Source: Zymoseptoria tritici IPO323 (lineage: Eukaryota; Ascomycota; Dothideomycetes; Mycosphaerellales; Mycosphaerellaceae). From it: a DNA stretch of 64,000 nucleotides. The stretch lies in contig NC_018213.1 in NCBI RefSeq assembly GCF_000219625.1, forward strand, positions 2,474,055 to 2,538,054, in the 5' to 3' direction. The translations under genes and the position numbers were made by a program. Position 1 is the stretch's first letter. Each line of letters opens with the position of its first letter. The notes beneath the pieces are model-generated. The model was not told the DNA's origin and did no database searches. It worked only from the letters and a program-made list of their open reading frames with translations. Below are positions 19,246 through 64,000 of this stretch, one piece after another.

Positions 19246-19254
19246 GAAAGCTTG
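19246..19254. repeat. Left 9-bp target-site duplication, GAAAGCTTG
   Basis: GAAAGCTTG directly abuts the left terminal inverted repeat of the 13.4-kb element. The identical nine bases abut its right end at 32622-32630. Confidence 0.85.
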
Positions 19255-19339
19255 TAGTCTCAGGCGCTCAGACCACCTCGCTTAACGGGCCTATTAGCTG
19301 CAAGCAGCTGGCCCTACTGTAGGTAGTCTGAGGGTCCAG
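19255..19339 (+). repeat. Left terminal inverted repeat
   Basis: The first 20 bases agree with the reverse complement of the right end at 17 positions. A second conserved block, GTCTGAGGGTCCAG at 19326-19339, pairs with 32545-32558 (13 of 14). The outer block also contains CTCAGACC, so each end can fold on itself (CTCAGAC against GTCTGAG). Confidence 0.8.
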
Positions 19340-19599
19340 ACGCGCTTTTTTCGTGATAGAGCGCAGCATTAGTATGTAAACACCACCAACATACAGTGCA
19401 GCATTAATAACGGCTAGTAGCGACGATAGCGACACTAGGTATAATATTCAAATTTCGGACACTATAACTTTGTACAACTAGACCTGCTAAACAACCTCCT
19501 GCTATCTATTTATCTATACCTCCTTAGTAGCGACCTCTAATAGAGCTCGCGTACCTCGCATCTTAACGACGCGTTTATATAGTAGGACGCGAGCTCTAT

Positions 19600-22500
19600 C
19601 AGAGGTCGCAGTTGGCGACCAATGCTAACAAAACTATATCTACTAGAACCGCACGCGCTCCCTCTACAAAGTTACAGTCCCCGATTCTCTAATAGCTCCC
19701 CCGAAGGCCTGCCGTAGACAACTAAAGGTCGCTAATCCCTAATCTTACGCTAGCGATATCTCGAGTAGCTTTAGTACTAGCAGCACTGGACAAGATAAGA
19801 ACAGTATAGGGACGTCGGTCGTCGAGGAAAATCGATCGCAAGAGTAGTCTCCTAGTACAGATATCGAGCGTATAGCTGCCCTACTCGACTAGTTCGATAG
19901 GTGCCCGGGCAACGACGACGGTAGTAACAGCAGGCTTTCGGACGTACCTAGTAACTTCGACGATGCAGGAGGGCTTTAGGGTGGTCTGCAAGCATCTGTT
20001 AAGGCGTCCGAGGAAGATTTGTCTATATAGAAGGTCCTAGGTAGAGGGGATATAAGGATCTATTTCGCCAGGCGACGCGAATAGGTAGCTAAGATAACCG
20101 CTGCTCTGTTACGTACGCTAGTAGAGGTTAATAACGCAGGCATAGAGAAGGTCGTACTTTAGGCGCTACATAATGTATAGCGGCAAAACACTAACCCGGA
20201 AGCTGTGCGTTCTACCTAGCTCGGTCCGGTAGGCGCTAACGGCAAGCTAACCCTCGAGATACCTAAAGACATAGTTAGCAGTCTGTTTATGCTATCGCGC
20301 CGGCGGGCGTTTCTTTAGGTACGCAATGCAATTAACCAGGCGATCGACGAGCCTATCCCTATCGACAGCGGGCTACCTATAACTACCGCTTAGCAGATGC
20401 ATTTAGTTCAGCAGGCAGTGCGACTCCTCCTTCCCTACCACGCTCGCCTACCGCAGGTCCGGGCACTCTACCAGCTGCTGTTTAACAACCGAGATCTTAT
20501 CTAGATCGCTGCTACGTCCGCAGGCAAAAGCCTCGTCTTCTAGGTATAGCCTATTATCCGCAACAAGATGTCGATCCTGATCTTGCCCTTAAACCAGATT
20601 AGCAGGGAACAGTTTAAAAGGATCGAAGGCATAGGAGGCAAGCTAGTTGCACTAACACATAATACGAAGGCTAGTGCTACAGCGGACGACTAGAAACTCC
20701 TATATTCTAGCAGGTGCACCTACTTAATGTTGTCTCCAGAGATAGCTATGTAGTCCTAGTTCCGGAAGCTTATAACAAGGACCGACGTGCGGAAAAGGCT
20801 AGGAATACTCGTCTACGATAAGTTTTATCTCGTCTACTAGTAGGGCATTAAGGAAGGAGGATTCCGGAAATAGTATACCTAGCTAAAGAACCTCCGGACT
20901 ATACTTCACGAGCGGGTAAAGTTTTACGGCTGCTCTGCGACGCTTAACACGTCCACTCTGCTCAAATGTTAGGAGGCGGCCGGGTTCGACCCGGACACTT
21001 AGCTTATTCGCGATCTAATCGATCGGCCGGAGATATCGATACAGTGTTATGCTATTCCGGACGGGATGCTAACGAACTAGCGGGCGCTTCGGTATCTGCT
21101 CGCAGACCTAGTCGGCCCGGACGGCGTTGCCAGACCTTAGAGCGTAGAGAAGACAGTCGTCTTTATTAACAGCCGTGCCGGCATCTATGCCGCTACTGCT
21201 AGTCTCCGGGCCTATATCTAAGTAAGGTATCCTAGTTAGCTAAGTTCGGACGAAGTACACCAGCTCGTAAGGACTTACTACGGCAGGACTGTAAGGAGGA
21301 CTCAGGCAAATGTTATCCGAGAGTTCCAGAAGCCCGACTCCCGCATCCGCATCCTTCTAGCTACTAAGGCGCTTGGCCTGGGGGTTAACTTACCTAACAT
21401 TAAACGCATTGTACAGTACCGACTAGCTATGAACGGCACTATACGTACTATTATCTAGCGTGCTGGCCGCGCAGTCCGAGACAGTCGAAAATAGGGAGCT
21501 AGTTCGTTTACGTTCCTACATAATCTATAGATGCTCGGTAATCGGGTTGTGTAAAGGCCGCCGGACTCTCAGGTCCCTACGAGATGGCAGAGCTAAGTAG
21601 ACGACGATACCGCAACGCCCACGAGCTCTGACGCTAACATGGATTGCCTGTCAGACGCTGGTTTAGATATCGATAAGCCTCTTTAGGTTAGCTAGTCGAA
21701 GAAAAAGAAGGGTAAACTAACGAATTAGCAGAAGCGCGACAAGATAGATAGATGTGTCTAGAAGTTTGTTAACGCTTGTCCGCCGAGCAGCACGTCCTTT
21801 CTACCGTCTTGTCGCCGCGTTGCGGCACTTGAGTTGTTTTCCGAAGTACCTAGGCCGGTAGTAGGACGTATCTGTTACGATATCTGCTCGCCGGCGTCCG
21901 CTCTACCTTCGGATTATATACTCGAATAGGCGACTGATCTAGGTACTCGTACGGCGGCAAGCATTACCCAGCCATACCTTAAGTCGATCCGCGATAGTCT
22001 AATTAAATGGGAGTCCGGAGCCGCTCGGTTATACTACAGCAACGCCGTCTTTCCGGGAGTTCCTGGGTCTCTACTGCCTTCGTATATGGTTAACTACCTC
22101 GCCAAAGCGTATAGTATAGAGGACGCGCTACCCGATTTCAGCTATAGCCGGATCTAGGGACTCTATGTAGGTATCGACTTCATAGTCTCTTCTAAGTTAT
22201 ACGACATGCTAGCACCGCAGTTGTCGACCCTACGCAAGGTCGCGGAGTCCATTAAAGCCTAGCGGCTACAGGAGCTTGCGACTAAGCGCGAGGGTCGGGA
22301 GAGGGAGCGCTAGGAGGAGCGCTAGCGCCAGCAGCTCCGACGAGAAGAGGCCTCTTCCAGTCGAGAACGGGATTGTTTCGCAGCCTCTTAGGAAGTAAGG
22401 TCTACTAGTGCTCCGGACCCTCGTATTGTCGCCTTTACTACTAGCAGTGCTCGTTCGGTCCTTGCTCGTACACCCTCCCCGGTATTGCCTACCTCCTTAG

Positions 22501-22922
22501 TTGTTACTAGTTCCAAGCGCCGCTGAGGGAAGGCGAAAGCTCCTCCTCTGCCTGCTCCCGGCCTGTCTGCTAGCGCCCAGCCTCTACCTCCTACAGCAGT
22601 TCCCAGCCCTACGGCGGTAGGCTCTCGGAAGGGCAAGAGCGCGGCTTCTAGTCCTGTTATCGCCCGAGCCTCGCCGGTGTGCAGATTCGGCACAGAATTG
22701 GATCCTAATCGTCGAGGCTCTCGTACGCCTACTCCTATTTCTCCAGCATCCTCCGAAGCAGCCTAGTCGCCTATAACTGCGGAAACATCTCGAGGCAGGA
22801 AGCGGGTCGTAAACGGGGTTTATTAGCGGCATCGACTCGGGTAGATCAATAGTTATGTAGATAAGCTAAATGGAGAGAAGAGGTAGTCGGCGCTAGGTGG
22901 TTTGTTTTGCCAAGAATGCTGA
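19600..22922 (+). pseudogene. RecQ-like superfamily-2 DNA helicase, RIP-inactivated
   Basis: One frame runs from about 19,600 to TGA at 22920-22922, interrupted by many TAG codons and one TGA (22524). Helicase motifs are in order: Walker A-like AATSAGKSLVF near 20,510; a degraded DExH box (DKFYLVY, expected DEFHLVYQW) near 20,815; the motif III-like GCSATL near 20,930; KTVVFINSRAGIYA near 21,150; and motifs V/VI, ATKALGLGVNLPNIKRIVQY followed by RAGRAVRDSRK, near 21,360-21,490. The DExH-x-V-x-QWG arrangement and motif V/VI spacing are RecQ-like. A Ser/Pro-rich basic C-terminal tail follows from ~22,300. The true start cannot be fixed because ATG codons may have been mutated. It is the first gene inside the element; its role in mobility is unknown. 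Confidence 0.75.
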
Positions 22923-23025
22923 GTCATGAGTGTATTTTTAGCTACTAGGCTCTCAGTCAACATCACCTCAGTTAACACTGTCGTCGACCTCATCTCAAGC
23001 TAAGTTAATATTAATATCTTACAAT

Positions 23026-26000
23026 ATGGATCAACAACAGTCAGCTTCCAGTTCTCGCCGTATACGTAGTCCTCGTCCACCTGCCCCCTAGTCGCCATCT
23101 AATTCGCCCGAGGGCTCGCCGCCACCCACGACTAAAGCCAGCTAGCAGACGAAACCCAAGCCGACTAGGAGGAAGAGAGGGAACAACCAGCATAGCGACT
23201 CGAAGTCCGCTCGCGAGAAAGTAGACTTTATACTATAGACCATTCGCGGGCAGCACCTGTCGTTCGAGGACTTCCTAACGCTTTATGTAACAACTAAGAA
23301 AGAATAGAACATACCTAACTAGGGCGAGCGGGCGGCTACTAGGGCGGCAAAGTTGGCACGGATTCTGCAGGAGGATAAAGTAGTAGAGTGCATCGCACCA
23401 CATATATCTAATAGTAAGTAGCTGAGTGCTGCGAGTCTGGCGAAAGAGCTCGAGGATCTAAAGGGACGGAAGGTAAGCAATATTAGCACGTATAGGTTCT
23501 GTTGCTAAGTCTATATAGGAATTCGGGTCTTAGGACAGAAAACTGCCCGCAGAAGAACTGGATTATAGAGACGCGGTAGCAGCTATAGGTTAGTACGTCC
23601 TATCTATTCAGGCTCTCGTGAAGGAGCTCTTAGGCTTGCCGGCAACTTAGGATCTCTCTAAGCCAATGCTCCGCCGCATTAGTCTTATTTCCAGTATGCT
23701 TCTACGCATAAGACATCCTCGATCCGGGAACTAGTTCGCTATGCAGTTAGGAGTGTACCTACAGAGTCAAGGTGTCAAACGTCGCGTTCTTGCGGTCCTA
23801 GCTAGACTAGGTATATGCGGATACCCGAAGAGTATATACTATTGCAACCGGATGCTCCACGACCTAGCTGCTGGTCGCATTAAGGCATTCGGCCGGTCTA
23901 ACCTTACCTATAGTATATTCGACAACCTGGACTACTTTGCCCGCGTCGGCTAGCATAGCTTCGGCAGGCGGGACGTCCTAAAACATGTCACTACCGCAAA
24001 ATGGTTCAAGAGCATCGAGGTGCTACGCTTAGGCCTAAAGAAAGAACTATTCCGAGAGGACAGGCCGCTTTAGCTACAAGACATCCTAGATAGCCCGGGC
24101 AACCGGCACGACGCTTAGCAGAAGGCGATCTTACTCTACTTAATCGCAAGCGCTATAGCAAGGGTGTATCTAGCCGACGTTGCACAGGCATTCGGTGTCG
24201 AATCTGACGATTCTGTTTTAAAAAAGAAACCGAAGAAGAAGAAGAATGTTAGCCAGGACCCTAGTATTAGTAGAGATACCGCTACCGGTAGCGAAGCTAA
24301 CCCTAACAGCATCGACTAGACTAAAGTAAAGGGCTTCCCTCAATTCCCGGCTTTTAATCGCATAGTAAAGCAGAAAACTATTAGTACTACTATAAATCTA
24401 ATCTACGAACAAGAGGGCACGACCGAAGGCACTTATAACGTTATAGAGAATATACTAGAGGAGCAACTTAAGCTTAGGGAATTGTACGAACAGGCTGTTA
24501 AAGGACAGAACGCGGACTAGATCTGCCGCCCTAGTAATTTCGACTGCTACGAACGCCCTCCTACTACTTAGACCCAGCCCTCTACTAGGCAGACCTAAGT
24601 GCCCGCTCCTCTAAATTAGTCGCCTACAGCTAATAACTATCGTCCCGGCACACAAATTCAGCCCCCCTCCTCGCAACATCAGCCGCCTACCTCGCAAAGC
24701 TGCCCTCCTAGCTCACAATATCAGCCGCCTACCTCGCAAAGCTGCCCTCCTAGCTTACAATACTAGCCGCCTACCTCGCAAAGCTGCCCTCCTAGCTCGC
24801 AATATTAGCCGCCCACCTCGCAGAGTCAGCCTCCTAGCTTATAGTACCAGCCGCCTACCTTACAGAGTCAGCCTCCTAGCTTACAATACCAGCCGCCCAC
24901 CTCGCAGAACCGCCTCCCTACGCTACGGAATCCGCCTCCTACTAGTCGAGACTAGCCCCCTAGTACTCGCAATCGACTACCTACGGACGGAGAACGTGCT
25001 AAGGACGACGTTCTGCGTGTTTGACGGCTGGTCGAGGACTTTACGGGCAGTGCGTATAACCCCTCTAGGTATATTCTACTAATGTACGGCGATCAGCTCT
25101 CCGTAAGTAACATGCGGACGTGGCTAAAGGAGTCCTAGGAGAATAAGGACGATTTTAACCGCATGCAATAGGTACTACTATTGCCTAGGCTCTTCCACCT
25201 CAAGATATATCTAATACAGGCAATCGAGAACAATTTTAACGGCAGAGAGGGCTGCCGGGCTAAATCGTCACTCCTGGTACACCGGGAGATAATGGAGCGG
25301 AAGATATGTCCATCATTTCGTATCATATGCTCAGCCGGGCTGTTAAATATGCGGACATTAGCCTGCTGCGTCGAGTCGTTAACCGCTGTATCCTGATCTT
25401 CCATGCACGCAGCCACAAGAATTACGCTTTCATTATGCTGTAGATGAAATGGCTAACCGATTCTAAGGCGTCAGATCCGGTGCTGCAAAGAGCGATGCTG
25501 GCAAACGGGTTCGTAAACATAGCGGGTGCCGAGGACAGTTAGTTCGAGATTAACCGGGCAAACGAGTTCCTTAATTAATACCTAAAGACTCTTATCAGCA
25601 GCCGCCGCAATAGGACATTCGACGTCGAGAATTAACTGGAAGAGGCAACCCTCTTAGTAACGCATACTAGCTATCTGCGAGAGGTTATAGAGGCTGGCTT
25701 CGGGGAGTCCACAAACACAAAGCACACGTCCCCAAAATCAGTTAAAGAGGTGCATGCTGTCGCAGCGGCATACTAGGACGAGACGTTAAAGACCAAAGAA
25801 GTCGATCCGGATCCTAACGTAGTAGCCCAGTTTTACGCTATAGACCTGTATACTATAGGTATTAAGAACCTAGTAACTCTAGTTAAGAATGTCAGCCGTC
25901 TAGAACGCTTTAATAAGAACGTAGTAGTTAAAGGACAACAGATTGTATAGGCCGACTAGCCCTTATTGTCTGTTAGCATAGAGCTTCCGGACCCAAGGAC

Positions 26001-26118
26001 GGACCCTTACTTACAACGAGCGGTAGCGACCGACCTAACACCTAGACTTATTATGTTATCCTAGGATCCAATAGACGGATACGAATTAGAGCTTTTACAA
26101 CAAGGCGAGGTAGAGTGA
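23026..26118 (+). pseudogene. DUF6589-like protein, RIP-inactivated
   Basis: The ATG at 23026 opens a frame with TAG stops. A clean 46-bp intron (GTAAGC 23473 to TATAG 23518) links exon 1 (149 codons) to exon 2. Family-like blocks follow in order: KVDFILQTIR-type N-terminus (TAG in place of Gln), GVKRRVLAVLARLGICGYPK, IFDNLDYFARVG, FPQFPAF, GTYNVIENI, then MYGDQLSVSNMRTWL, LPRLFHLKIYLIQAIENNF and YHMLSRAVKYADISLLRRVV. These resemble fungal DUF6589 proteins as I remember them. A one-base frame change is needed near 25,250, and the frame closes with TGA at 26116. A 14-residue tandem repeat is inserted between the two halves. DUF6589 proteins are multicopy in many fungi; a transposase role is my hypothesis. 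Confidence 0.7.
24668..24930 (+). repeat. 42-bp (14-residue) tandem repeat within the DUF6589 ORF
   Basis: About six units of 42 bp encode SQYQPPTSQSCPPS-like peptides. Units differ mainly by C-to-T or G-to-A changes (TCACAATAT, TTACAATAC, TCGCAATAT), consistent with RIP after the array formed. It forms a Pro/Gln/Ser-rich linker. Confidence 0.8.
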
Positions 26119-26435
26119 TGTCAGTCACTTCGCCAGTCGCTACGTACTACACGGGAGCAAACCGGGCGTAGCAGGGCGCTGTTATACGCCTGCTATCGTT
26201 AGCTGATTCACCGAAATTCACGGGCATTAATTGTGTTAACTACACAGGTGCCTCCTAGTATATCTACCGCCCTATCGACATTATTACTCGGAACTCTTCT
26301 ATCCACTAACAACATCTCGACTCCACTTTATCATCCACTTCCTTATCTACTCTCTTGTCCACTTTATCTACTAATCAACTATCTCTTCTATTACCCACCT
26401 TCGCGAACGCACGCGAACTCGAATACTAGCTTACT

Positions 26436-28031
26436 ATAAGCACTCCTACGAGCAGTAGAAACCTCTCGGGTCTCTAGCGACCAGCCGACTTTGGCGAAGC
26501 CCCACTAGGCACCAATTAAGACCAGTACAACGCGGCATACATCTAGATATAGGCGAACTAGTTCAGCCAGCCAAAAATACGGATATCAGAGCTCGAGGTA
26601 ATAGCGTTCATCGTCAAGCTTTATAGCGTCCTCACATAGGAGGATAGTGCCATACTAGATCCACTTAAGAGATTCATACCCAGGTTACACGCCTCTAGCA
26701 GACCGCACACCGAACTTATGCTTCTCCTCGACAGCCGAGCCGACTAGGCGAAGCTTATTCCCCGGGACAAGATCGCTACGCGTATGCGCGGCCGCAACGA
26801 TTTCTACCTATATGTAAGCACCACTTCGCTTTCTACGATCCTAGCCAGCTTTATAGTGGGTGCCGAGCGCATAGGCGAGCCGGAGGAGAAGGATAGTTAA
26901 CGCGGCTGCGACTAATGCAGTCCATACGATAACCAGAAAGGCTTCGTTAAAGGCTGCTACACATTCCCGGCGCCGGATAGTTTGTCTAAGCTCTAGTCGG
27001 GCGCGTATACCAACTGCCTGCTAGACGGCAATAAGAAGGGATGTAGCATTAGCAGAAGGAAGTTATCGCGAGTTTACGACAGGCTAGCATCTAAAAACAC
27101 GGCCAATACGTCGACTAGACAGCGCAACGATCCGCTATTAGCATTACTTAGACGCGTCCTGGCCGAAGTTAACATTACAGACATCTTCGACGGAGATAGT
27201 GTCCCAGATGCCGTTAGCTATCCTACTTCGAACGACTCTATCCTACGAGAAGACTGCATAGTAGGTACACTTAACATTCCATTCGTCTTTAGCTAGTACG
27301 ATACTGCGGAGGCTTACGTCGGTCGGATGGAAAGTGCAGCGGCTAAGACTGCAGAAGCATGTCGGACTGCTATCAGGAATGCCGCCATAGCTCGAGACCA
27401 AACTAAGATAGCCGCGGCCGAGGAGAGACAGGTGTCCTTATCCGGATCTAAAGACTCTATGCTAGTGTTCAGCATGCCGAAGGCTAAGGTCCGAGAGCGC
27501 AAGCAGTATAGGAGCACGAGATTAGAGCGACTAACTCAAGGCAGGAGGGTTCCTGTCGACGAGGACCGTTCTAGGCGCCGCTCGGATCGAAAGAATTTGC
27601 CCGGCAGCTTCGGAGAAATAGACGTCAAAGATGAAGACGATCTAGTCGTCCCTTCAGCCTAGAAATCCGGAAGGAAGAAACCAGCACTCACCGACCTGTT
27701 TAGCAGCCCCGAGCCGGAGACTACGCTAGCGAAGAAGCAAGCTTTAATAATAAGCAACATCTTTAGCAGCTTGCTAAGCAGTCGCAATAAGAGTCGCATA
27801 GTAACCTAGCCTTCCTAGCCTCGCGCCTCGCAGCCGCCTAGGCGGAGGGTCTACAAGCCGCGACAAATTTCAGACGAGGAGATGGTCGACGCCGGAGGGG
27901 ACCGAGACGTTACTATAGAGTCCGTGCCTACGGGCACTATAAGGCCCAGCAGGAGCAACAAAGTAGACAAGAGTAATCGCCGCCGTAAGCGGTAGTTAGA
28001 TAGCTACACTAAGACACTAGAGCTTGCTTAA
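26436..28031 (+). pseudogene. Cys-motif protein, paralogue 1 of the element
   Basis: The frame begins at ATA 26436 (expected ATG lost by TpG-to-TpA) with STPTSSRNLSGL and ends at TAA 28029-28031, about 531 codons with TAG and TAA interruptions at Gln/Trp positions. The middle has a cysteine array, CDQC-type pair (Gln read from TAA), then KGFVKGCYTFPAPD, AYTNCLLDG and CSI, which recalls zinc-binding segments of other fungal proteins. The C-terminus is basic. It aligns over most of its length with the second paralogue at 29213-30901, for instance LASFIVGAERIGEPEEK against LASFIKGTNEIGEPDDK. The function is unknown; DNA or RNA binding would fit. Confidence 0.65.
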
Positions 28032-28100
28032 TTTATAGCGCCTACACTGCTATTTTGGATTCGCGTTTTGCTTTATTACCTGCGTAGCTGCTATGCTGCC

Positions 28101-28129
28101 GTCCTATCGTTAGGATAGCCCTACAGGAC
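28101..28129 (+). other. Conserved hairpin, copy A
   Basis: Stem GTCCTAT/ACAGGAC (one G-to-A change breaks a pair) around the loop CGTTAGGATAGCCCT. It lies 70 bp after the stop of paralogue 1. Confidence 0.6.
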
Positions 28130-28251
28130 TAGCGACCGCTTCTCAGCATTTGTTTAGCGCATTGCGCCTTGGATTTTACAAACGGCAGTCGCTCCAACAC
28201 GACATACTAATCAGCAATAGACCACAAGCCCGTTATTAAAGGTCCGTTCGC

Positions 28252-28278
28252 ACCTGTCGTTAGGATAGCCCTACAGGT
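28252..28278 (+). other. Conserved hairpin, copy B
   Basis: Perfect stem ACCTGT/ACAGGT around the same loop CGTTAGGATAGCCCT, about 150 bp after copy A. Confidence 0.6.
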
Positions 28279-28984
28279 CGACAGCAAGTTGCCAGATACA
28301 TTCTTCGAATTAAACCTTAGTATCCCTATTAGCTATCGCCTTATATTACTCAGGTGTTGCGTAAACCTAGTAGTGTCATAAACAGGAGCGCAGCTTCTTC
28401 ATCCGTATTATACTCATTATCCGAGCTACTATAACGCCGGAGTCCAGGACTCGCATCATACCCACGCTAAAGTAGGCGGGCCTAGTACATATACACGGAC
28501 TAAGGAGTCTAACATAGCCTCGAGGCTCGTAAACATGAGAGGAGCCATAAGACGAGGTCTGAACCGTAGACCGGAATGAATCTTAGATCCGGCTATACCG
28601 CACACCTCATAATTCCTAGTACTACTAGAATAGCCAAAGTTACTACTAAGTCCTCACTACCGGAGCGAGGCTAATAAGCTATATAACCGACTTTACGGCT
28701 AAGATCTCACTGCTAAAGTAAGCCTGGTAAACTATATAACCTAACCGCGACGATAAGTGATATCGTGCTCCCTAAACACCCACGTGCAAGGCGCGACAGC
28801 AAACCTATCACGCGCTGTTATACGCGCAGGAGGGGCCGCGTGGTAAATTCACGAGCCAGCTGACGTACTAACTAGCCGACTCGAAAGCGGTGATTGTGCT
28901 AGCTGCACAGAGGGCAACCTGCGTATATCTACAGCCCTACTGACCTCGTTTCTTAATCTTCTTTCTCCATCCTTCATTAACCTC

Positions 28985-29075
28985 CTTCCCCTTCTGCCTT
29001 CCTTACATCATCTACCACATCATCCACCACACTATCCATCACACTATCCATCACACTATCCGCTACACCATCCGC
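28985..29075 (+). repeat. 12-bp tandem repeat in the 5' region of paralogue 2
   Basis: Five or so degenerate units of ATCCATCACACT lie in a pyrimidine-rich stretch about 140 bp before the ATG at 29213. A similar pyrimidine-rich stretch (26,300-26,400) precedes paralogue 1. Confidence 0.6.
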
Positions 29076-29212
29076 TATCGTCCGCTTGCGTCGAGCAGGC
29101 CACCATTCGTGACTACGCTGCCTCATCAGAAGCAGCCATTGTAAGCTCATAACTTCCTAACATTCACCGCGATTTATAATCTAAAGACTAACGAGACTAC
29201 AGCACTACCGAA

Positions 29213-30901
29213 ATGTCCGAGACTCTAGGAAAACGCGCGAAGATTATCCGCGACGGTCTCGAGCGCCTAGCAAGCTAGGGCAATGCGCTATCTAGAACAG
29301 ACTAGTAGGAGTACGAGGCCGTTATAAGGTAGCTGTAGAAGCATTAGTTCGGCTATAAGCGAGTCGAGCACACGAAGGAGAGTATCGCGGAGTTTATTAG
29401 AAAGCTTTACTAGGCTCTGTTATAGGAGGATAGAGCGGCGGTACAAAAATGCAGAGAGTTCATTCCGTCGACTTATGCAAATAGTCGCCCTTATAGCGAA
29501 CTAGAGTCTATCCTGGATTCTTTAGCAAGCTAGGCGAGGCTCATTAGCCCGCAGGAAATTGAGGACCGTCTACGCAGCGACATAAACGTTAACCTATAGG
29601 GAAGCGCTACGAAGCTTAGCGCTATCCTAGCTAGCTTTATAAAGGGTACAAATGAAATAGGCGAGCCAGACGATAAGGTAGGTTAACGTAGCTGCAACTA
29701 ATGCAGACTATCTTTAGACGCAAAAGGCCTGGTTAACGGCTGCTTTACGTTTCCCGCGCCAGACGGCAAATCTCTCCTCTTCGGCGGCGCCTGCACGAAC
29801 TGCCTGCTTAATAGCAGTCACTACTTATGTAGCATTAGCATAGTCCCGGTGAAGAAGCGCGTATCGCGTACGAGCAAAGGTGGCAAGCGAGAAGAAACTC
29901 AGCCGTTATTATTGCTAAACAGAGTTACCTAGCAAGTGCGCATTAGCGAGATCTTCGACGATAGTGCTAGTATCCTAAACTCCGTTACCTATCCTACCTT
30001 AGACGACTCTATCCGGGTAACTAACCGCATAGTAGGTATACTAAGCGTTCCCTTTACCTTCAGCCGGAACGACGATGCTACTACATACGTCAGACGGATT
30101 AAGAGCGCATTAAAGGACAGAGTAGAGGAGTATCGGTCGACACTACGTAATTAAGAGCTCCGGAACTCATCTAAGTCCGATGCTGGAGATGCTTAGTCGA
30201 TAGGATCGGGCATTTCGAGGCTAAGAATAAAGACTACGAGTCTAAAGAAGAAGACGCCTCGGAGGATAACTAGTAGGATAGAGGAGGAGCTAGAGGAACT
30301 AAGGAGGGAGCCTAAAGACTTCGCGCGTAATTAGCGCTGCATCACCCGCTTACAGAGCACTACCTAGCAGCCCTAGGCAGACGAGATAGAGGTAGACGAT
30401 TAGCTAGTAAGCCGCCGACGTCGTCGCCGCTCTAAGAAGACTTCCCAACTCTCGCTAGAGTTTGTACAGGAGGACTTAGATAAGGATCTCGAGGGGATCT
30501 AGACGTCTAGCCGTCCCCCCTTTAAGGACGGTAGGATAGTTAGTTCGAAGGTGGATAAGACACCTAGCAAGAAGAAGAAGGGTAGTGTTTTCTCGGACAT
30601 AAACTTGGGCTTAGGTTTCAGCCCGGATCCCAGCGCAGAACTAGAACCCCGGACTAGAGCGATAGGGATGTTCGACAGGTTCCGTAGCCGCAGCAGCTGC
30701 TTAGTTACGCTATAAAGTGCAGTAAAGCCTCGCACGGCGGAGGCACCAGCTCGTCGAGCATACAAGCCTTAGGATCAGGACACGCGCATAAAGGATCTCG
30801 GTAAGGACGACACGACCCAGGACCTTACTAACACGTCTACTAAGGCAGGAAAGCAGAAGCGCCGCGAGTCTAGCCAGGGCGGTCGCTACCGCGACCGCTA
30901 A
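29213..30901 (+). pseudogene. Cys-motif protein, paralogue 2 of the element
   Basis: ATG at 29213 opens with MSETLGKRAKIIRDGLERLA and the frame runs to TAA 30899-30901, 562 codons with about twenty TAG or TAA interruptions. A CNQC-type pair, KGLVNGCFTFPAPDGK, GACTNCLLN and CSI repeat the cysteine pattern of paralogue 1, and ISEIFDDSASILNSVTYPTL matches ITDIFDGDSVPDAVSYPTS there. The tail is Arg/Lys/Ser-rich. The 5' flanks (around 26,180-26,300 and 28,810-28,955) and the 3' hairpin modules of the two genes are also related, so the whole transcription unit was duplicated head to tail. Confidence 0.65.
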
Positions 30902-31032
30902 GAAACGGAGCGACAGGTACGGATAATGGGAGGGCACTACGGAGCATACGGATGTTTTAACTTAGATTTCAGTACTTTTATTGCATTTACTAGCATCGCG
31001 CTGCGACTTTAGCAGAGCAGCATCGAACTTAG

Positions 31033-31057
31033 CCCGTCGTTAGGATGGCCCTACGGG
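31033..31057 (+). other. Conserved hairpin, copy C
   Basis: Stem CCCGT/ACGGG around CGTTAGGATGGCCCT. Relative to copy B, one T-A stem pair is replaced by C-G. A further outer helix (GCATCG against CGATTGC) may add to it. It lies about 130 bp after the stop of paralogue 2. Confidence 0.6.
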
Positions 31058-31180
31058 TAGAGCGATTGCTAAGCGAGCATTGGATTTTACGCATCGCGAC
31101 TCCTACATAAGATAGGAGTAGAGACGAGACATAACACGGACGGCAGTGGACTGCAAGTCCTAACATCGCTGTCTAATTCC

Positions 31181-31207
31181 ACCTATCGACAGGATAGCCC
31201 TACAGGT
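31181..31207 (+). other. Conserved hairpin, copy D
   Basis: Stem ACCTAT/ACAGGT with one RIP-type G-to-A change, loop CGACAGGATAGCCCT. Its spacing from copy C mirrors that of B from A. Confidence 0.55.
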
Positions 31208-31656
31208 CAAAAGCATGCTTACAGTTAAGTCCTTTTTAATACAACCCTAGTGCCTTTATAACCCGAACCGTCTTATTTACTAGTGCTCTAGCAAACGTAA
31301 GGCTCCCTTTTATTAAACATTGCTATATGACAATAGAGTTCGCCGTAAGATTATAGAACACGCGAGGCGATTGCTATTCTTATAGCACTTTAGCATAACT
31401 ATTCATCAGATGAGACCGGCAACGTGGATAAGTCGACAGCTACGTACGAATAGCAATCAGCAGCTGACAGAATTCACTAACGAGATGCTAACGTTACGCC
31501 GCGTAGCCAGGCGACCGAATAGCATACAAAACAACCCCGTAAGAGCCCCTAAGACTTCTCTCGAACACCAACATTAACAACTATTAAGCGAGACTAGTAA
31601 GCATGCCTTAGCTGCCCAGGCAAACATCCGAACTATACTAACATTCGCCAGACACT

Positions 31657-32286
31657 ATGTGCTTCTCCTTAGACGACTAGTTAGTCTATCGTGGTGTTAA
31701 CCGCCACCCGAAGCAAGGTCTGCGAAAGTTGCGCGCCTTCCGGAACTACTTAGAAGAAGAGCGCCAGGCGCAGCGGCAGGACGAGCGCATAGCGCAAGAA
31801 CAAGACTTCAAATCCGCATACGATCTTCTAGCACGGCGCCCATCCGACAACCGCGATTAGTCGCGATACGGAGGCTTAGGATACTATGTAGGAAGCTCTA
31901 ACTACTACTATATAGATAAGACACAAGAATCACGTTCAGGACAGCGTATGGAGGGGAGGCTAGGGATAAGGCTAGATAACGGACGTAATACTAGAGATGC
32001 TAGGCGGACGACCCGGAATCTATGGCCCGCTCAAGTTAACAACCCGTTTATAACGCGGCCAGCGCCTCGCAGCACAGCGCCGTCGACTTATCGCAACATA
32101 GGACAGCATCCCTATATCGAGACTGTAGCAACTTAGTCGAGTACACGCAGTCGCTCCAGCCGACGACCAAGAGCTTATTAACCGCTATTAACGAAGCAGA
32201 ACCTAGCGGATTAGCAGAGCAGGGCGGCAGCGATTAAGGCCAAGGAGGAACGCGCGCGGCAGCGTCTTACTATAGCGGACAAATAA
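31657..32286 (+). pseudogene. Basic/Arg-rich small ORF, last gene of the element
   Basis: ATG at 31657 opens a 209-codon frame closing with TAA at 32284, with several internal TAG codons. It starts MCFSLDD and contains a charged helical stretch, FRNYLEEERQAQRQDERIAQ, then an Arg/Asn-rich middle (RRTTRNLWPAQVNNPF) and an Arg/Lys-rich end. I recognise no domain. The coiled-coil-like segment and basic charge suggest a structural or nucleic-acid-binding protein. Confidence 0.45.
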
Positions 32287-32544
32287 CATAGTACTAGCGA
32301 CGGATATAGGGGCGCAATAGACACAGGCATAGTAATTTTAAGCTTTTGGCATAAGAATCCAGCTGCGATACTAGTTAGAAACTAATACCCCTACTACGCA
32401 CGACAGCAATAGAATTACAGCATAATTTTTACAGCAGTGCAATTAGATCGACATGCAGCTTCTTATACATACCTTAATTATGCGATAAAAGTGGTTTTGA
32501 ATTTTCGATGTCGCGGCGCTGCATAGCATCACCCAAAAACGCTG

Positions 32545-32621
32545 CTGGGCCCTCAGACCCTCTCAGGCGAGGCGCTCGAAGAGGTTAGTGCTCGCCAAGA
32601 GGGTCTGTGCTTCTGAGACTA
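32545..32621 (-). repeat. Right terminal inverted repeat
   Basis: Inverted copy of the left end: CTGAGACTA at 32613-32621 and CTGGGCCCTCAGAC at 32545-32558. The spacing between the two conserved blocks is 63 bp here and 71 bp on the left. Confidence 0.8.
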
Positions 32622-32630
32622 GAAAGCTTG
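32622..32630. repeat. Right 9-bp target-site duplication, GAAAGCTTG
   Basis: Identical to 19246-19254 and directly adjacent to the right inverted repeat. Confidence 0.85.
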
Positions 32631-59224: not shown

Positions 59225-60702
59225 ATGGAGCGGCCTAAACAACCTCGACAACCTCTTAATATAGTTAGTAAGGCCTATGAATCGCTAGTTTACCGTTATT
59301 AGTGTAAAGCTAAGAAGCGCTATCTCGACTATACGCTCTCGCGTAAGGAACGCGCTCTTACTACCGTCTATCGCTGTCTAAGCTCTTACCGCGTTTACGT
59401 AATAACATAGATATCTAGTAGATCGTTTAGTCGGTCGATCCTTATATTAGAGTACCTTCTCGAGAGCCGGCTCCTTCGTAGACTCTAACCCTTACGCTAG
59501 CCCCTCGTAAATCCGTAACGCCGTTCTCGTTATAGGGGGGTCTAACACTAGCGCCGGAGTAAGAGGCTATTCGATAAGCTATAGAGTAGCGTTAGCGTAA
59601 ATAGCTTCTATAAGGGTCGAGCTAGCCGGTCGTAAAGCGATCTATCGAGTCTACCGCCGCTCCGGAGCCGGCGCCGCTAAAGAGGAAGAAGAAGAGCTAG
59701 AATTAGCGTATAAGGGCATAAGCATCCGCTCTTACCGCCGATAGTAGCGCTATTAGTAATCTCGGTAGTAAGGAGCTCGGCTCTCGTAAGCTACGTAAGA
59801 AGGGGTTAACGGATAAGGAGTAGTTAATCCTTATCCGGATATATATAGATAATAAGGACGCTATAAACGATAGCTTTAATGCGGTGCTCGCCGTCTAGTT
59901 TAAGTAGTAGACCGGCGTCGACTATAATACCCTTAGCCGCGTAGTAAAGAAGCTTAAGGACGAGTAGAAGAAGCGCCTTACGGCATAAGGTAGCGGCACC
60001 GGTAAGGAAGATAAGACGAGTATATCGATAGCTATAAAGGAGTAGCTAGAGGTTAGAGCGACCGTAGATATACGTAAGGAGCTTCGCGCTGCCTCTATAA
60101 AGGCGATAGTTAATAAGACGTATAACGCTTAGCTAGTAAGGCATAATATATTACGTCGTTAAGGGTTAAAGGATAAGCGTCGTAAGGCTCGTAAGGATAG
60201 TAGTAGTAGTAAATCTAGCTCGGACGACGGCGGCGATAAGGACGCTAAGGGTAAGGTTATAGATGTTAGTAAAGACGAACGCTTTAATACTATACCGCCG
60301 CCGCCCTCGCGAACGATAGGGCTAGCTACGCTAGGTACTCGGTCGTCCTTATCGTTAATACTAGGCCCTCGACAATCGTTATCGTCGACACTAACGCCGG
60401 CTCCTTTAACGGTAAGTATATCGTCTCGAGTAAGGGGTGCGAAGCGGCGTAGGCTAGTAGACGATAGCAACGATATAAAGGGTAACCTTAACAAGCTTAT
60501 AAAGAACATAAATAAGCGCTAGGGCTCTAACGCTCTCGTTAACTAGCTCGTCTAGAGTATACTAGACTTAAAGCAATAAGTCGGTATACTTACGACGTTA
60601 GTTAAGAAGGTAGTGCCGGCCGTTAAGTCGATAAACGAGCTAAAGGCGGCGTAGTAGTCGTATAGTAACTTTAATCCGAATACTTATCTTAGTAGAATTT
60701 AA
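59225..60702 (+). pseudogene. Myb/SANT-like DNA-binding ORF of the Harbinger element
   Basis: ATG at 59225 begins MERPKQPRQPLNIVSKAYES. After several stops and a frame change, the frame ending at TAA 60700 reads GLTDKE-stop-LILIRIYIDNKDAI, then GVDYNTLSRVVKKLKDE, with TAG at Trp/Gln positions, the kind of tri-helical Myb/MADF-like segment that Harbinger elements use to bind their ends. A Ser/Lys/Asp-rich linker and a further helical C-terminus (LNKLIKNINKR, VKSINELKAA) follow. In active relatives this protein assists nuclear import and DNA binding of the transposase. Confidence 0.55.
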
Positions 60703-61183
60703 GACCTACCCTCGATAGTAAGAGCTCGATAGTTTATAGTCCGAATCGGCTAATTCCGAGATATATAATAGCGCTAAGCTTATATAAGAAGCTCGTTACG
60801 TCAGATCTACGTTACCTTATATATTAGTAGAGAAATATAGTAGTAGTGTTAAAGGAGTTCTTAAATATATTCGAGCTTGTTTAAATTCGAGGGTCCGGCG
60901 CTTAGCTTAGCTCTATTTACGAGATAATTAATAACGTAACTATTCCTACACCGATTAACTCTATTCTTTTTTACTAATTACCGACGATACTAAAAAATAC
61001 AACGCGCTATATAAAGTAATAGAAAGATGTTGTTGTTAATATATTATATTAGATAGCGGTGAAAATTATAAACTTTCGGGTATAGCCGCGGCTACTAAGA
61101 ATACTAACTTTAAAGTCGTTAGAGCTAGATAGTCGGATTCTACGGTCGTTAGACGTAAACAACGATGTCGCCGAGGCTTAGTT

Positions 61184-62446
61184 TTAGTATAAATCGCTAC
61201 TAGATTAATCGCTAGCTTTATCGTCGGTTACGGAGTCGTAGGGGTCCGGTTAATAGAGGTACTCGTATAGCCTAGGGGGTAGAATATTATATTTCTTACT
61301 CGTTTAGTTATGCCCCTTTATATACGTATAGCAATTAGTTAATAGTATAGCTACAATAAAGAACGAGCTAACTACTTACTTTCTAAGATATAGGCTAAGC
61401 TTAAAGGTGTTGTATGTCTACTTACGGGTAGTCTCTCTAAAGGCGTGTTCGACGCTAATCCGGAGACTCGAGAGCTTCTTATTAAAGCGCTTCTACTCGG
61501 CGGTAAGATGTCGACGACCGAGTAAGTACTTATAGGGAGCTATAACACCGAAGGAGCTAAAATAGGTAGGGTCGCTATATAGGTAGAGCCGTCGCCGGTT
61601 ACGACCTTCTACTATACGTCTTAGTCGTCGGTTAATACCGGATTGTTTATATATAAACTAGTCGTTCTTACTACCGTTAAAGGGGCCTATAAGGCTTAAG
61701 ATTAGACCGTCTAGTGTTATAATAGCCTAGTATTTATAGCTATAAGCCTTCTTATAACCGCTATATTACTTCCGCTAATTCTCTCCTAGAGTTTAGAAGC
61801 CTTAAAAGTAGCTATCTACGAAGCCCTATATCTATCCTTCTACGCCGGCGTCCTTAATAACCCTCGCGAAGGTCTTTAACCGTTCGTAGCTCCGGAGGCG
61901 TAGATACTATTCGACGAGGGTACTATAGCATTTAGTAAGATAGTCGACGGTGTTCGTAAAGAGGGTAGAGCAGTAGGAACTAGAGCGGCCGAAGGCCTCT
62001 ACTACGTCGGCCTAGCGATGTAGATAGCTAAAGCGCTAGAGCGTAACATATAGGGCTATATAAGGTAGAGGTTAAAGGCGTCTACGGAACACAATTAAGT
62101 CGACATTAAATGCCTCGTTTAGCTCTATAACCTCTTCCTTCGTAAATCTAAACATAAGGTTAGTTAGCTCTAATTAGCTAAAAGAGGTTAGTTAGCGGCG
62201 GCGACGGTAACCTTCTAAAGTCTTAATTTACTACCGACCTTCTTCCTTCTATTAACTACTACTACTACTATCGCGGACTAACCTTATGTACGTCTTAAAC
62301 TAGCTCGTAGGCCTATAGTCGATAGACTACTCGATAAACAAGTAATAAGACTCTGGCCGCTACTATAGTAGCGCCTTGTCGAGTCGATAAAACACTACTA
62401 ATGCTATTACTAGCACTAACAGCTCGAAATCCTCCTCCGAATCCAT
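61184..62446 (-). pseudogene. PIF/Harbinger DDE transposase, RIP-inactivated
   Basis: One minus-strand frame of 421 codons from ATG 62446 (MDSEEDFELLVLVIALVV) to TAA 61184, with about twenty TAG or TAA codons at Gln/Trp positions. Harbinger features are in order: MFRFTKEEVIELNEAFNV near the N-terminal third, GYKKAYSYK before the core, IITLDGLILSLIGPFNGSKND (second catalytic-region Asp in GSKND), YLYSDPTYFSSFGVIAPYK (third Asp, usual GDxAY block) and RISVEHAFRE (the final Glu region). The gene runs against the Myb-like ORF and ends about 480 bp from it. Confidence 0.75.
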
Positions 62447-62598
62447 CGTTAACGGACGTCTACTACTAAAGAAACGCGGTATACTAGTTAGAAACGCACT
62501 TAATACGAGGGTGACAAGAGCCAAGAGATATTGCACGGATCACACGTGTTTTTTACGCTATACTACATTTACGCGATCACGCTATTGCTCTATATAGT

Positions 62599-62654
62599 TT
62601 GCCACCTTGTTAGTGGTTGTCGGTCGTAAACCGACAACCTCTGCTGAAACGTTC
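62599..62654 (-). repeat. Right terminal inverted repeat of the Harbinger element
   Basis: Inverted copy of 59119-59164. It contains its own short palindrome, GTTGTCGG ... CCGACAAC. Confidence 0.8.
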
Positions 62655-62656
62655 TA

Positions 62657-63370
62657 ATGGATGTAACTCCAAGGAGTTTGACACCACTCCGGACACCGCC
62701 GGATAAGTCGTCTGTCACTTGGCCCATCCTCGTGGTCTCTACTTACGGAACGATCACGAGAGCTCACATACAACACCTGGACCAAGGGCAAGGAGTAGTG
62801 CATACAGTCCATTGCCACAGCCGCTCGTTACTAACCTCCTTTGGCCGCTGTTGCAAGGGCTCGTTGTCGAATCGATTGGTAGTTATGTTGTCGGTTAACA
62901 CGGTACATAGTGGCTGCAAGGGAGGTGTAATTGACCGGCATAGTGCTAGCCTTAGCCGGCATAGTGCTATAGTTACCGACATAGTGCTATAGCTCGGTTA
63001 AGCGGTTGCAAGGCTCTTAAACACTCGCTTCTGCAGTAATTACTAATATACTAGATATCGGAAGGTCGGTGCGCAGAGCGATAGCATTTACCTTACCTTA
63101 GTGTGCAGTAGCTGGTGTTTAGCTTAATAGCTTTATATCGCTGTTTAATAGCGTGTGTAATCTGTTATATATAAGGCGAATTCGCTAGTGTTATTGCAGA
63201 GCTGTTAGTTTTAAGAGCGTTTTGACAGCGCTTCTACGGAGATTACGGAGATTTAGCTCTACTGCGCTACTGCACTAAGGGCGACAGGTGCTAGGCTAGT
63301 AGCATATATATAGGGCGCAGAATTAGTGTAGAGCAGTATATCCATCCCTTCTATTGTCTTCGTTGTTACT
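62657..63370. other. Spacer between Harbinger and mariner-like elements
   Basis: Bases 62,657-62,930 look like ordinary, non-RIP sequence without a supported gene. From about 62,940 TA-rich decay begins, so the left end of the next element or another repeat probably lies near there. I could not fix its terminus. Confidence 0.4.
62935..62995. repeat. Three ~20-bp tandem units, CCGGCATAGTGCTA
   Basis: CCGGCATAGTGCTAG, GCCGGCATAGTGCTATAG and CCGACATAGTGCTATAG follow each other directly, differing mostly by C/G-to-T/A changes. Confidence 0.65.
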
Positions 63371-64000
63371 ATGCCGTACGTTAATCCAAACTGCTCGTTC
63401 TTAAGCTCTAGCAGCTCTAACGCCTTCGCACCGGCAGTCTACCCCCTTCTACCTCGTCGTATTAGTTATCGTCCAGTGCTTGCTAATAGCATAGTTAGTC
63501 TACGCACGTTGCTATAGCCAGCTCCGGATACAGAGCTAGTAACTCCTTAGCGTTCGTTCTTCGAGCCGGAGGTGGTAGACGACGACGACGAGCCGCGCGG
63601 TCGTAGACTCCTTCCGTACGCTATTCGCACTCGAATTAAGACCCTTAAACGCGTTGCCGGCTGGACGTTGCATCGCATTGCTGCCGCTCTTAGTAAGCTA
63701 TATAGCATTATTCAAACTATTACCGCCGAGGCAGCAACACTAGCTCGTCGTAGACTCTATAGACTGCGTTAGTTCGGCACCCCTATCGCTAACAGGATCG
63801 TAGACTACGTTACTAGCGGTGTGGAAGGTCGTCGAGCGACCTACTAGTAGATTAAAGAGAGGCTTTAGCTGCTATGCTCTGTTAACACTATTCGACGCAG
63901 GCCGGCGACGAGGAACACCTGTACGTGGTGCCGGCTACGAACCTACGACGACATCGTCGTCGTAAAGCCAAGTTTCCTCCGGAGGATTGGAGAGGCCGTC
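63371..64000 (+). pseudogene. Tc1/mariner-like transposase N-terminus, cut by the window edge
   Basis: ATG at 63371 begins MPYVNPNCSFLSSSSSNAF; the frame stays readable to the window edge through several TAG codons. Near 63,610-63,720 the helix-turn-helix segment RTRIKTLKRVAGWTLHRIAA and then IIQTITAEAATLARRR resembles the DNA-binding start of Tc1/mariner transposases, followed by RIVDYVTSGVEGRRATY and a second helix pair. The DDE catalytic part lies outside. A TATATATA stretch at 63306-63313 may be its promoter. RIP-type decay is evident. Confidence 0.55.

What the first reader, a model, noticed from the sequence alone, without database searches (positions are those of the whole stretch)
19246..32630. 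A 13.4-kb TIR element with a perfect 9-bp duplication and an unfamiliar gene set
Directly seen: GAAAGCTTG flanks both ends, the terminal 20 bases are inverted copies (17 matches), and a second inverted block GTCTGAGGGYCCAG lies 63-71 bp inside. Between the ends all five ORFs share one strand: RecQ-like helicase, DUF6589-like protein, two paralogous Cys-motif proteins and a basic ORF. Known families with 8-11-bp duplications (hAT, KDZ, Mutator) carry a recognisable transposase that I do not see; Starships carry a DUF3435 recombinase and Helitrons lack TIRs. I infer a large cut-and-paste element of an undescribed or little-described family.
Basis: partly seen in the sequence, partly recalled or inferred. 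Interest (0 to 1): 0.92.

Follow-up and report, generated by a model that had tools for sequence, protein, structure and literature searches.

The report
Helicase-carrying fungal DNA transposon
This is one of at least eighteen copies of a large, mutation-silenced jumping gene in a wheat-infecting fungus; it fits a known but little-studied transposon lineage that carries its own DNA helicase, and its genes point to an unassigned protein family as the likely cutting enzyme.

Summary
It is a real mobile element of Zymoseptoria tritici. Of 33 end pairs fetched (this family, a related 11.6-kb family B, short derivatives), 32 have an exact 9-bp duplication and one 8/9; all 33 differ. Eleven copies compared differ almost only by transitions (ratio 128): a burst later hit by RIP. 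The window copy also has a private ~363-bp deletion inside its DUF6589 gene. Genes: RecQ-type helicase, DUF6589 protein, two DUF3716-like paralogues, basic ORF. Of 37 DUF6589 loci in the genome, 34 lie within 15 kb of a relative of the helicase. Best reading: an AcademH-type DNA transposon, a lineage published as making 9- or 10-bp duplications and encoding a helicase (PMC10045372, passage), with DUF6589 as probable transposase. That last step is inferred: both structure predictions failed, and no Academ reference protein was at hand. Probably a new family of a known kind; no paper in the held library contains DUF6589.

The parts
19246..19254 (+). left 9-bp target-site duplication GAAAGCTTG
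32622..32630 (+). right 9-bp target-site duplication GAAAGCTTG
19255..19274 (+). left terminal inverted repeat TAGTCTCAGGCGCTCAGACC
   Evidence: 17/20 against the right end; same boundary in the 17 paired copies
32602..32621 (-). right terminal inverted repeat, reads TAGTCTCAGAAGCACAGACC on the - strand
19326..19339 (+). inner inverted block GTCTGAGGGTCCAG
32545..32558 (-). inner inverted block GTCTGAGGGCCCAG
19722..22853 (+). RecQ-type SF2 helicase gene, RIP-broken (41 TAG, 4 TAA, 1 TGA in the window copy)
   Evidence: span and stops; DEAD 3.3e-11; in sister copy c02 DEAD 2.2e-9 and Helicase_C 1.1e-11, TIGR00614 recQ_fam 3.1e-16, below its curated cut-off, PDB RecQ 4tmu 2.1e-10
23477..26115 (+). 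DUF6589 protein gene (probable transposase), RIP-broken and with a private deletion; both limits approximate
   Evidence: window domain pieces 25043-25303 (2.4e-11) and 25315-25725 (1.4e-16); undeleted sister copy c02 1.9e-38
25319..25320 (.). junction of a ~363-bp deletion found only in the window copy among 11 compared
26520..28028 (+). Cys-motif protein 1 (DUF3716-like), RIP-broken
   Evidence: window copy below cut-off (E 0.25); same gene in copy c07 E 4.2e-6 and 6.5e-6
29192..30712 (+). Cys-motif protein 2 (DUF3716-like), RIP-broken, paralogue of protein 1
   Evidence: DUF3716 at 29687-29836, E 2.1e-4, above the cut-off
31642..32178 (+). basic ORF, RIP-broken, no Pfam match

Best explanation
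A RIP-inactivated copy of a class II (TIR) DNA transposon that works like, and most likely is, a member of the AcademH lineage of the Academ superfamily, in Zymoseptoria tritici. Shown: a discrete element with fixed ends, 9-bp duplications at independent sites, 18 copies with both A-type ends and helicase remains (a 19th pair of A-type ends holds no helicase or DUF6589 hit), a second related family, short derivatives that share the ends, and coupling of a RecQ-type helicase with a DUF6589 protein. Inferred: the DUF6589 protein is the DD(E/D) transposase. It would bind the TAGTCTCAG ends, cut them, and join them to the two target strands 9 bp apart; host repair would fill the 9-nt gaps and make the duplication. 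The helicase would open or process DNA at the ends or the target. The DUF3716-like cysteine proteins and the basic ORF would be accessory DNA-binding proteins. Cut-and-paste rather than copying is assumed by analogy.
For: Ends and duplications: 33 pairs examined, 32 exact 9-bp, 1 of 8/9, all 33 different (details). TIR pattern: 87 exact genome matches, 0 for the reversed-pattern control. Family B: 6 of 6 fetched pairs exact, five of 11.6 kb and one of 20.3 kb. Gene coupling: 34 of 37 DUF6589 loci have a relative of this helicase within 15 kb, 29 of them on the same strand; at most 3.7% of the genome is that close to one. Apart from the helicase, DUF6589 is the only enzyme-sized domain above chance in six read-through frames of copy c02. 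RecQ type. Short derivatives: 3 of 3 internally deleted A copies and 5 of 5 MITE copies fetched have exact 9-bp duplications. Burst: 11 copies, transversions 0.044% per site per pair, transitions 5.6%. Published: AcademH 9 or 10 bp with helicase, AcademX 3 or 4 bp with nuclease (PMC10045372, passages).
Against: No Academ or AcademH transposase sequence was available, so transposase kinship is untested; the AcademH paper is not held. Both AlphaFold2 models of DUF6589 proteins failed (mean pLDDT 39.5 and 45.7), so an RNase H fold is not shown. Pfam files DUF6589 as unknown function, and DUF6589 proteins hit no transposase model. The candidate D-D-E columns were picked by eye among 17 conserved D/E/H columns, on an alignment of few independent lineages. 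3 of 37 DUF6589 loci had no such helicase within 15 kb. With two mismatches allowed, the end pattern gives 164 matches against 59 for the control, so only exact matches are telling. No intact A copy, empty site or excision footprint was seen. Family A proteins here are read-throughs of RIP-broken frames.
Confidence: 0.75

Rival explanations
1. The DUF6589-RecQ elements are a superfamily of their own, not Academ, that reached a 9-bp duplication and a helicase independently.
For: No sequence tie to any Academ protein could be tested; DUF6589 proteins hit no transposase model; no held paper contains DUF6589 and the one paper with PF20231 is an unrelated optics paper (listing).
Against: Duplication length, TIRs, helicase and fungal host all match what is published for AcademH.
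Confidence: 0.17
2. A Mutator-like (MULE) or hAT/KDZ element whose transposase has decayed beyond recognition, carrying a captured helicase and DUF6589.
Against: No such domain in six read-through frames of c02 (forward frames at E 0.5; reverse frames at E 0.01). Family B, diverged to about 40% identity in the helicase, keeps DUF6589 and helicase, so these look like core genes, not one-off captures.
Confidence: 0.04
3. KolobokH, the fungal Kolobok lineage with a RecQ helicase.
For: RecQ helicase, found only in fungi (PMC9587614, passages).
Against: Kolobok makes TTAA-specific 4-bp duplications (same passages); here 9 bp, 33 different sequences.
Confidence: 0.01
4. A Helitron, Starship or the described Z. 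tritici element Styx.
For: A helicase (Helitron), large size (Starship), same species (Styx).
Against: Helitrons lack TIRs and duplications (PMC4522978, passage); no DUF3435 domain found; Styx insertions are about 7,927 bp with 6-bp duplications and an IS3EU-type transposase (PMC10853768, passages).
Confidence: 0.01

Closest known systems
AcademH lineage, Academ superfamily (Kojima 2020, Mob DNA 11:15; not held, known here through passages of PMC10045372 and PMC10799480)
   Same: DNA transposon with TIRs, 9- or 10-bp duplication, encodes a helicase (DEAD/Helicase_C), occurs in Ascomycota
   Different: Transposase kinship untested. Whether AcademH elements elsewhere carry DUF3716-like proteins or reach 13.7 kb is not known to me.
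KolobokH (PMC9587614, passages)
   Same: Fungal DNA transposon with a RecQ helicase
   Different: TTAA 4-bp duplications; helicase downstream of a Kolobok transposase domain, which is not found here
Mutator-like elements (features recalled)
   Same: 8-11-bp duplications, TIRs
   Different: No MULE domain found
Z. tritici MITE family with 8-9-bp duplication (PMC4522978, section 6 read)
   Same: Duplication length; the 565-570-bp short elements here could be that family (untested)
   Different: No autonomous partner was named in the parts I read
Styx (PMC10853768, passages)
   Same: Large recent DNA transposon of Z. tritici
   Different: about 7.9 kb, 6-bp duplication, IS3EU type

Membership tests
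AcademH | terminal inverted repeats with fixed boundaries | tested here: met
AcademH | 9- or 10-bp target-site duplication (PMC10045372) | tested here: met
   32 of 33 pairs exact 9 bp, one 8/9
AcademH | encodes a helicase | tested here: met
   DEAD and Helicase_C, RecQ type
AcademH | Academ-type DDD/E transposase | not testable with these tools
   no Academ reference protein available; DUF6589 is the candidate; AlphaFold2 failed
AcademH | occurs in animals and fungi (title of the AcademH paper) | tested here: met
   fungus: P0005, identical to a DUF6589 frame of this genome, is named Z. tritici
KolobokH | TTAA 4-bp duplication | tested here: not met
   33 different 9-mers
Mutator-like elements | MULE transposase domain | tested here: not met
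   no such Pfam hit in six read-through frames of copy c02
Helitron | no TIRs, no duplication, Helitron-type N-terminal domain | tested here: not met
   TIRs and duplications present; no Helitron_like_N hit
Starship | DUF3435 tyrosine recombinase | tested here: not met
   no DUF3435 hit
Styx / IS3EU | 6-bp duplication, about 7.9 kb | tested here: not met

The most novel reading that the evidence does not exclude
DUF6589 defines a so far unrecognised eukaryotic transposase family whose transposons travel with a RecQ-type helicase, with a 9-10-bp stagger and cysteine-motif accessory proteins. It is either a superfamily of its own or the unnamed Pfam face of AcademH. The many DUF6589 'proteins of unknown function' in public genomes (abundance recalled, not counted here) would then be transposases.
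Probability: 0.25. Interest if true: 0.7.

Novelty: new member of a known kind. Interest (0 to 1): 0.45.

Why it matters
The curated Z. tritici library leaves 105 of 331 TE consensus sequences unclassified (PMC10652580, part 1 of 2 read). This work gives boundaries, duplication length, gene content and short derivatives for what may be several of them (which ones was not checked). If DUF6589 is the transposase, a Pfam family of unknown function gets a role and can serve as a search handle for AcademH-type elements. A RecQ-type helicase paired with a 9-bp stagger also makes a mechanistic question testable: why helicase-bearing Academ elements make longer duplications than nuclease-bearing ones.

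Tried and rejected
Structure: two AlphaFold2 jobs on DUF6589 proteins (alignments of 16 and 12 rows) gave mean pLDDT 39.5 and 45.7. They were too poor to search, so no fold search was run.

Homologues: three protein searches. The RIP-broken query found nothing at E 0.001; the C18 frame found 4; the profile found 6, its own first row included. Too few for a deep alignment. PDB searches gave only chance hits for DUF6589.

Family C: on C18 a low-RIP DUF6589 + helicase pair on opposite strands has possible ends at about 113,733 and 124,608 with a 10-bp repeat GACTGTTTGC. A 49-bp homologue elsewhere on C18 starts at that border. The repeat can be read as 8 to 12 bp, and 18 chance-level 10-bp pairs were listed, so it is not counted among the 33.

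Weak forward-frame Pfam hits taken as chance: zf-C2H2_ZNF592 (E 0.17) and Enolase_N (E 0.078).

Considered and rejected: MULE, hAT/KDZ, KolobokH, Helitron, Starship, Styx (see rivals).

Literature: 10 searches used. The AcademH paper is not held.
Full report
What was checked first. The two GAAAGCTTG copies, the 17/20 inverted ends and the inner inverted block are all at the stated places. The element proper is 19255-32621, 13,367 bp. The window lies at G000:C6:2474055-2538054 in a genome of 39,686,251 bases in 21 contigs. Size and contig number fit Zymoseptoria tritici IPO323 (recalled). The species is supported by a DUF6589 frame from C18 that is 100% identical, over 95% of the query, to a protein named Z. 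tritici ST99CH_1E4.

Copies and boundaries. Seventeen pairs of full-length ends (16 of 13.4-15.3 kb, one of 26.5 kb) were fetched. In all 17 the ends fall at the same base; 16 have an exact 9-bp duplication and one, on C2, 8 of 9. Two longer intervals with A-type ends (28.4 kb on C1, 35.7 kb on C5) also have exact 9-bp duplications. The C5 one has no helicase or DUF6589 hit inside and its content was not read. So 18 of the 19 pairs hold helicase remains.

Relatives. An exact pattern made from the ends has 87 matches in the genome and 0 for the reversed control. With two mismatches it has 164 against 59 for the control, and the list is cut. A second family (B) has ends TAGTCTCAGACGCTCAGACC / TAGTCTCAGACGCACAGACT. 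Six pairs were fetched, five of 11.6 kb and one of 20.3 kb, and all six have exact 9-bp duplications; five further B-type left ends were not fetched. The B helicase is about 40% identical to that of family A. Three internally deleted A elements (123, 421 and 1,371 bp) and five MITE-like elements of 565-570 bp also have exact 9-bp duplications. In total 33 pairs were examined: 32 exact, one 8/9, all 33 duplications different. Further paired ends were listed but not fetched, among them six MITE-sized pairs and two more. Target preference is weak: G is slightly favoured at the first base of the duplication, C at the last (both strands pooled).

Activity and decay. Eleven copies were compared (11 of the 19 pairs). 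Transitions are 5.6% per site and transversions 0.044% per site per pair, ratio 128. The copies were therefore near-identical when they spread and were then hit by RIP. At segregating C/T sites the C allele is followed by G (7,964 counts) about as often as by A (7,094), while invariant CA is almost gone (171). The window copy and the ten others are all RIP-marked (TA/AT 1.5-2.1). The window copy alone lacks about 363 bp inside the DUF6589 domain; 10 of 10 others have it.

Genes. Read-through of single copies gives, in order on one strand: a RecQ-type helicase (DEAD, Helicase_C, recQ_fam; PDB RecQ); a long protein whose later half is DUF6589 (1.9e-38 in copy c02; two pieces in the window copy); two DUF3716-like cysteine proteins that are paralogues (8 of the 11 DUF3716 matches in the genome lie in copies of this element; in c02 both fall just short of the curated cut-off); and a basic ORF without match. 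Reverse frames of c02 gave no Pfam match.

Coupling of the two main genes. DUF6589 has 41 matches in the genome, merged to 37 loci (same strand, within 25 kb). For 34 of the 37, a relative of the element's helicase lies within 15 kb: 29 on the same strand (families A and B) and 5 on the opposite strand (a third, more distant group, whose ends are not established). At most 3.7% of the genome is that close to such a helicase. The loci are not independent, since they fall into a few families; but the pairing holds across families whose helicases are only about 24-45% identical, and in the third group the orientation is changed. This is what one expects of two core functions rather than of chance cargo. 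Three loci (C7:709 kb, C18:475 kb, C3:1.57 Mb) lack such a helicase nearby.

Mechanism. The data show an element that inserts at unrelated sites, duplicating 9 bp, with ends that short derivatives share. The amplified 565-570-bp elements suggest that the ends suffice in cis and can be served in trans. The single 123-bp element lacks the inner inverted block, but a deletion after insertion would look the same, so this says nothing firm about that block. The enzyme is inferred to be the DUF6589 protein. Between family A and the other sequences, D in a YDN/FDN motif (column 248, 3/3 and 8/8), D in GDQ (488, 6/6 and 7/8) and E (753, 2/2 and 8/8) are conserved. These are my pick from 17 conserved D/E/H columns and are only candidates. 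Two AlphaFold2 runs failed.

Comparison with what is known. A held paper that cites the AcademH work states that AcademH generates 9- or 10-bp and AcademX 3- or 4-bp duplications, and relates this to the helicase and the nuclease they encode (PMC10045372, passages). A second held paper lists DEAD and Helicase_C among the domains of AcademH, KolobokH or Helitron elements and places AcademH in Ascomycota, Basidiomycota and Mucoromycota (PMC10799480, passages). The element meets the AcademH features that could be tested. The one that could not be tested is kinship of the transposase. KolobokH, the other fungal RecQ lineage, is ruled out by its TTAA duplications (PMC9587614, passages). Styx of the same species is a different element (PMC10853768, passages). 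The 2014 Z. tritici repeat survey could not identify TIRs or duplications for its non-MITE DNA transposon families, but had one MITE family with an 8-9-bp duplication (PMC4522978, passages and section 6).

Novelty. No held paper contains DUF6589; the only one with PF20231 is an optics paper (listing). Five held papers contain both Academ and Zymoseptoria (listing). I searched passages in three of them, PMC9970103 (by other terms), PMC10799480 and PMC12210899, and saw no description of such an element in Z. tritici; the other two were not opened. The library is partial and Repbase/Dfam could not be searched, so the family may already sit there as a consensus. Verdict: a real, well-bounded transposon family, probably a new family of the known AcademH lineage, with a probable new role for DUF6589.

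Noticed in passing
window 61334-61780 (- strand), within a low-GC stretch near the right end of the window: A DDE_Tnp_4 domain (E 2.7e-20) appears on read-through of 59,500-64,000 (GC 0.41-0.49): another decayed DNA transposon, Harbinger-like by domain (recalled).
   Followed up: partly
inside copies L014, L015, L020, L025 of the element: Four of ten fetched copies carry a nested insertion of 756-1,553 bp that begins with about GACGGCCGAACAG, ends in a (ACAA)n tail and is flanked by 13-14-bp duplications, three exact and one with a mismatch; it looks like a retroposon.
   Followed up: partly
L049 (G000:C18:114600-124400): A little-RIPped relative with DUF6589 and helicase on opposite strands, the main DUF6589 frame free of stops; possible ends with a 10-bp repeat are ambiguous.
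   Followed up: partly
G000:C18:125263 (L064): A solo piece of about 42 bp of the family A right end followed by other sequence (sequence printed); perhaps a deletion remnant.
   Followed up: no
11 copies of the element: Segregating C-to-T changes are about as frequent before G as before A, not only in the usual RIP context CA (usual context recalled).
   Followed up: no
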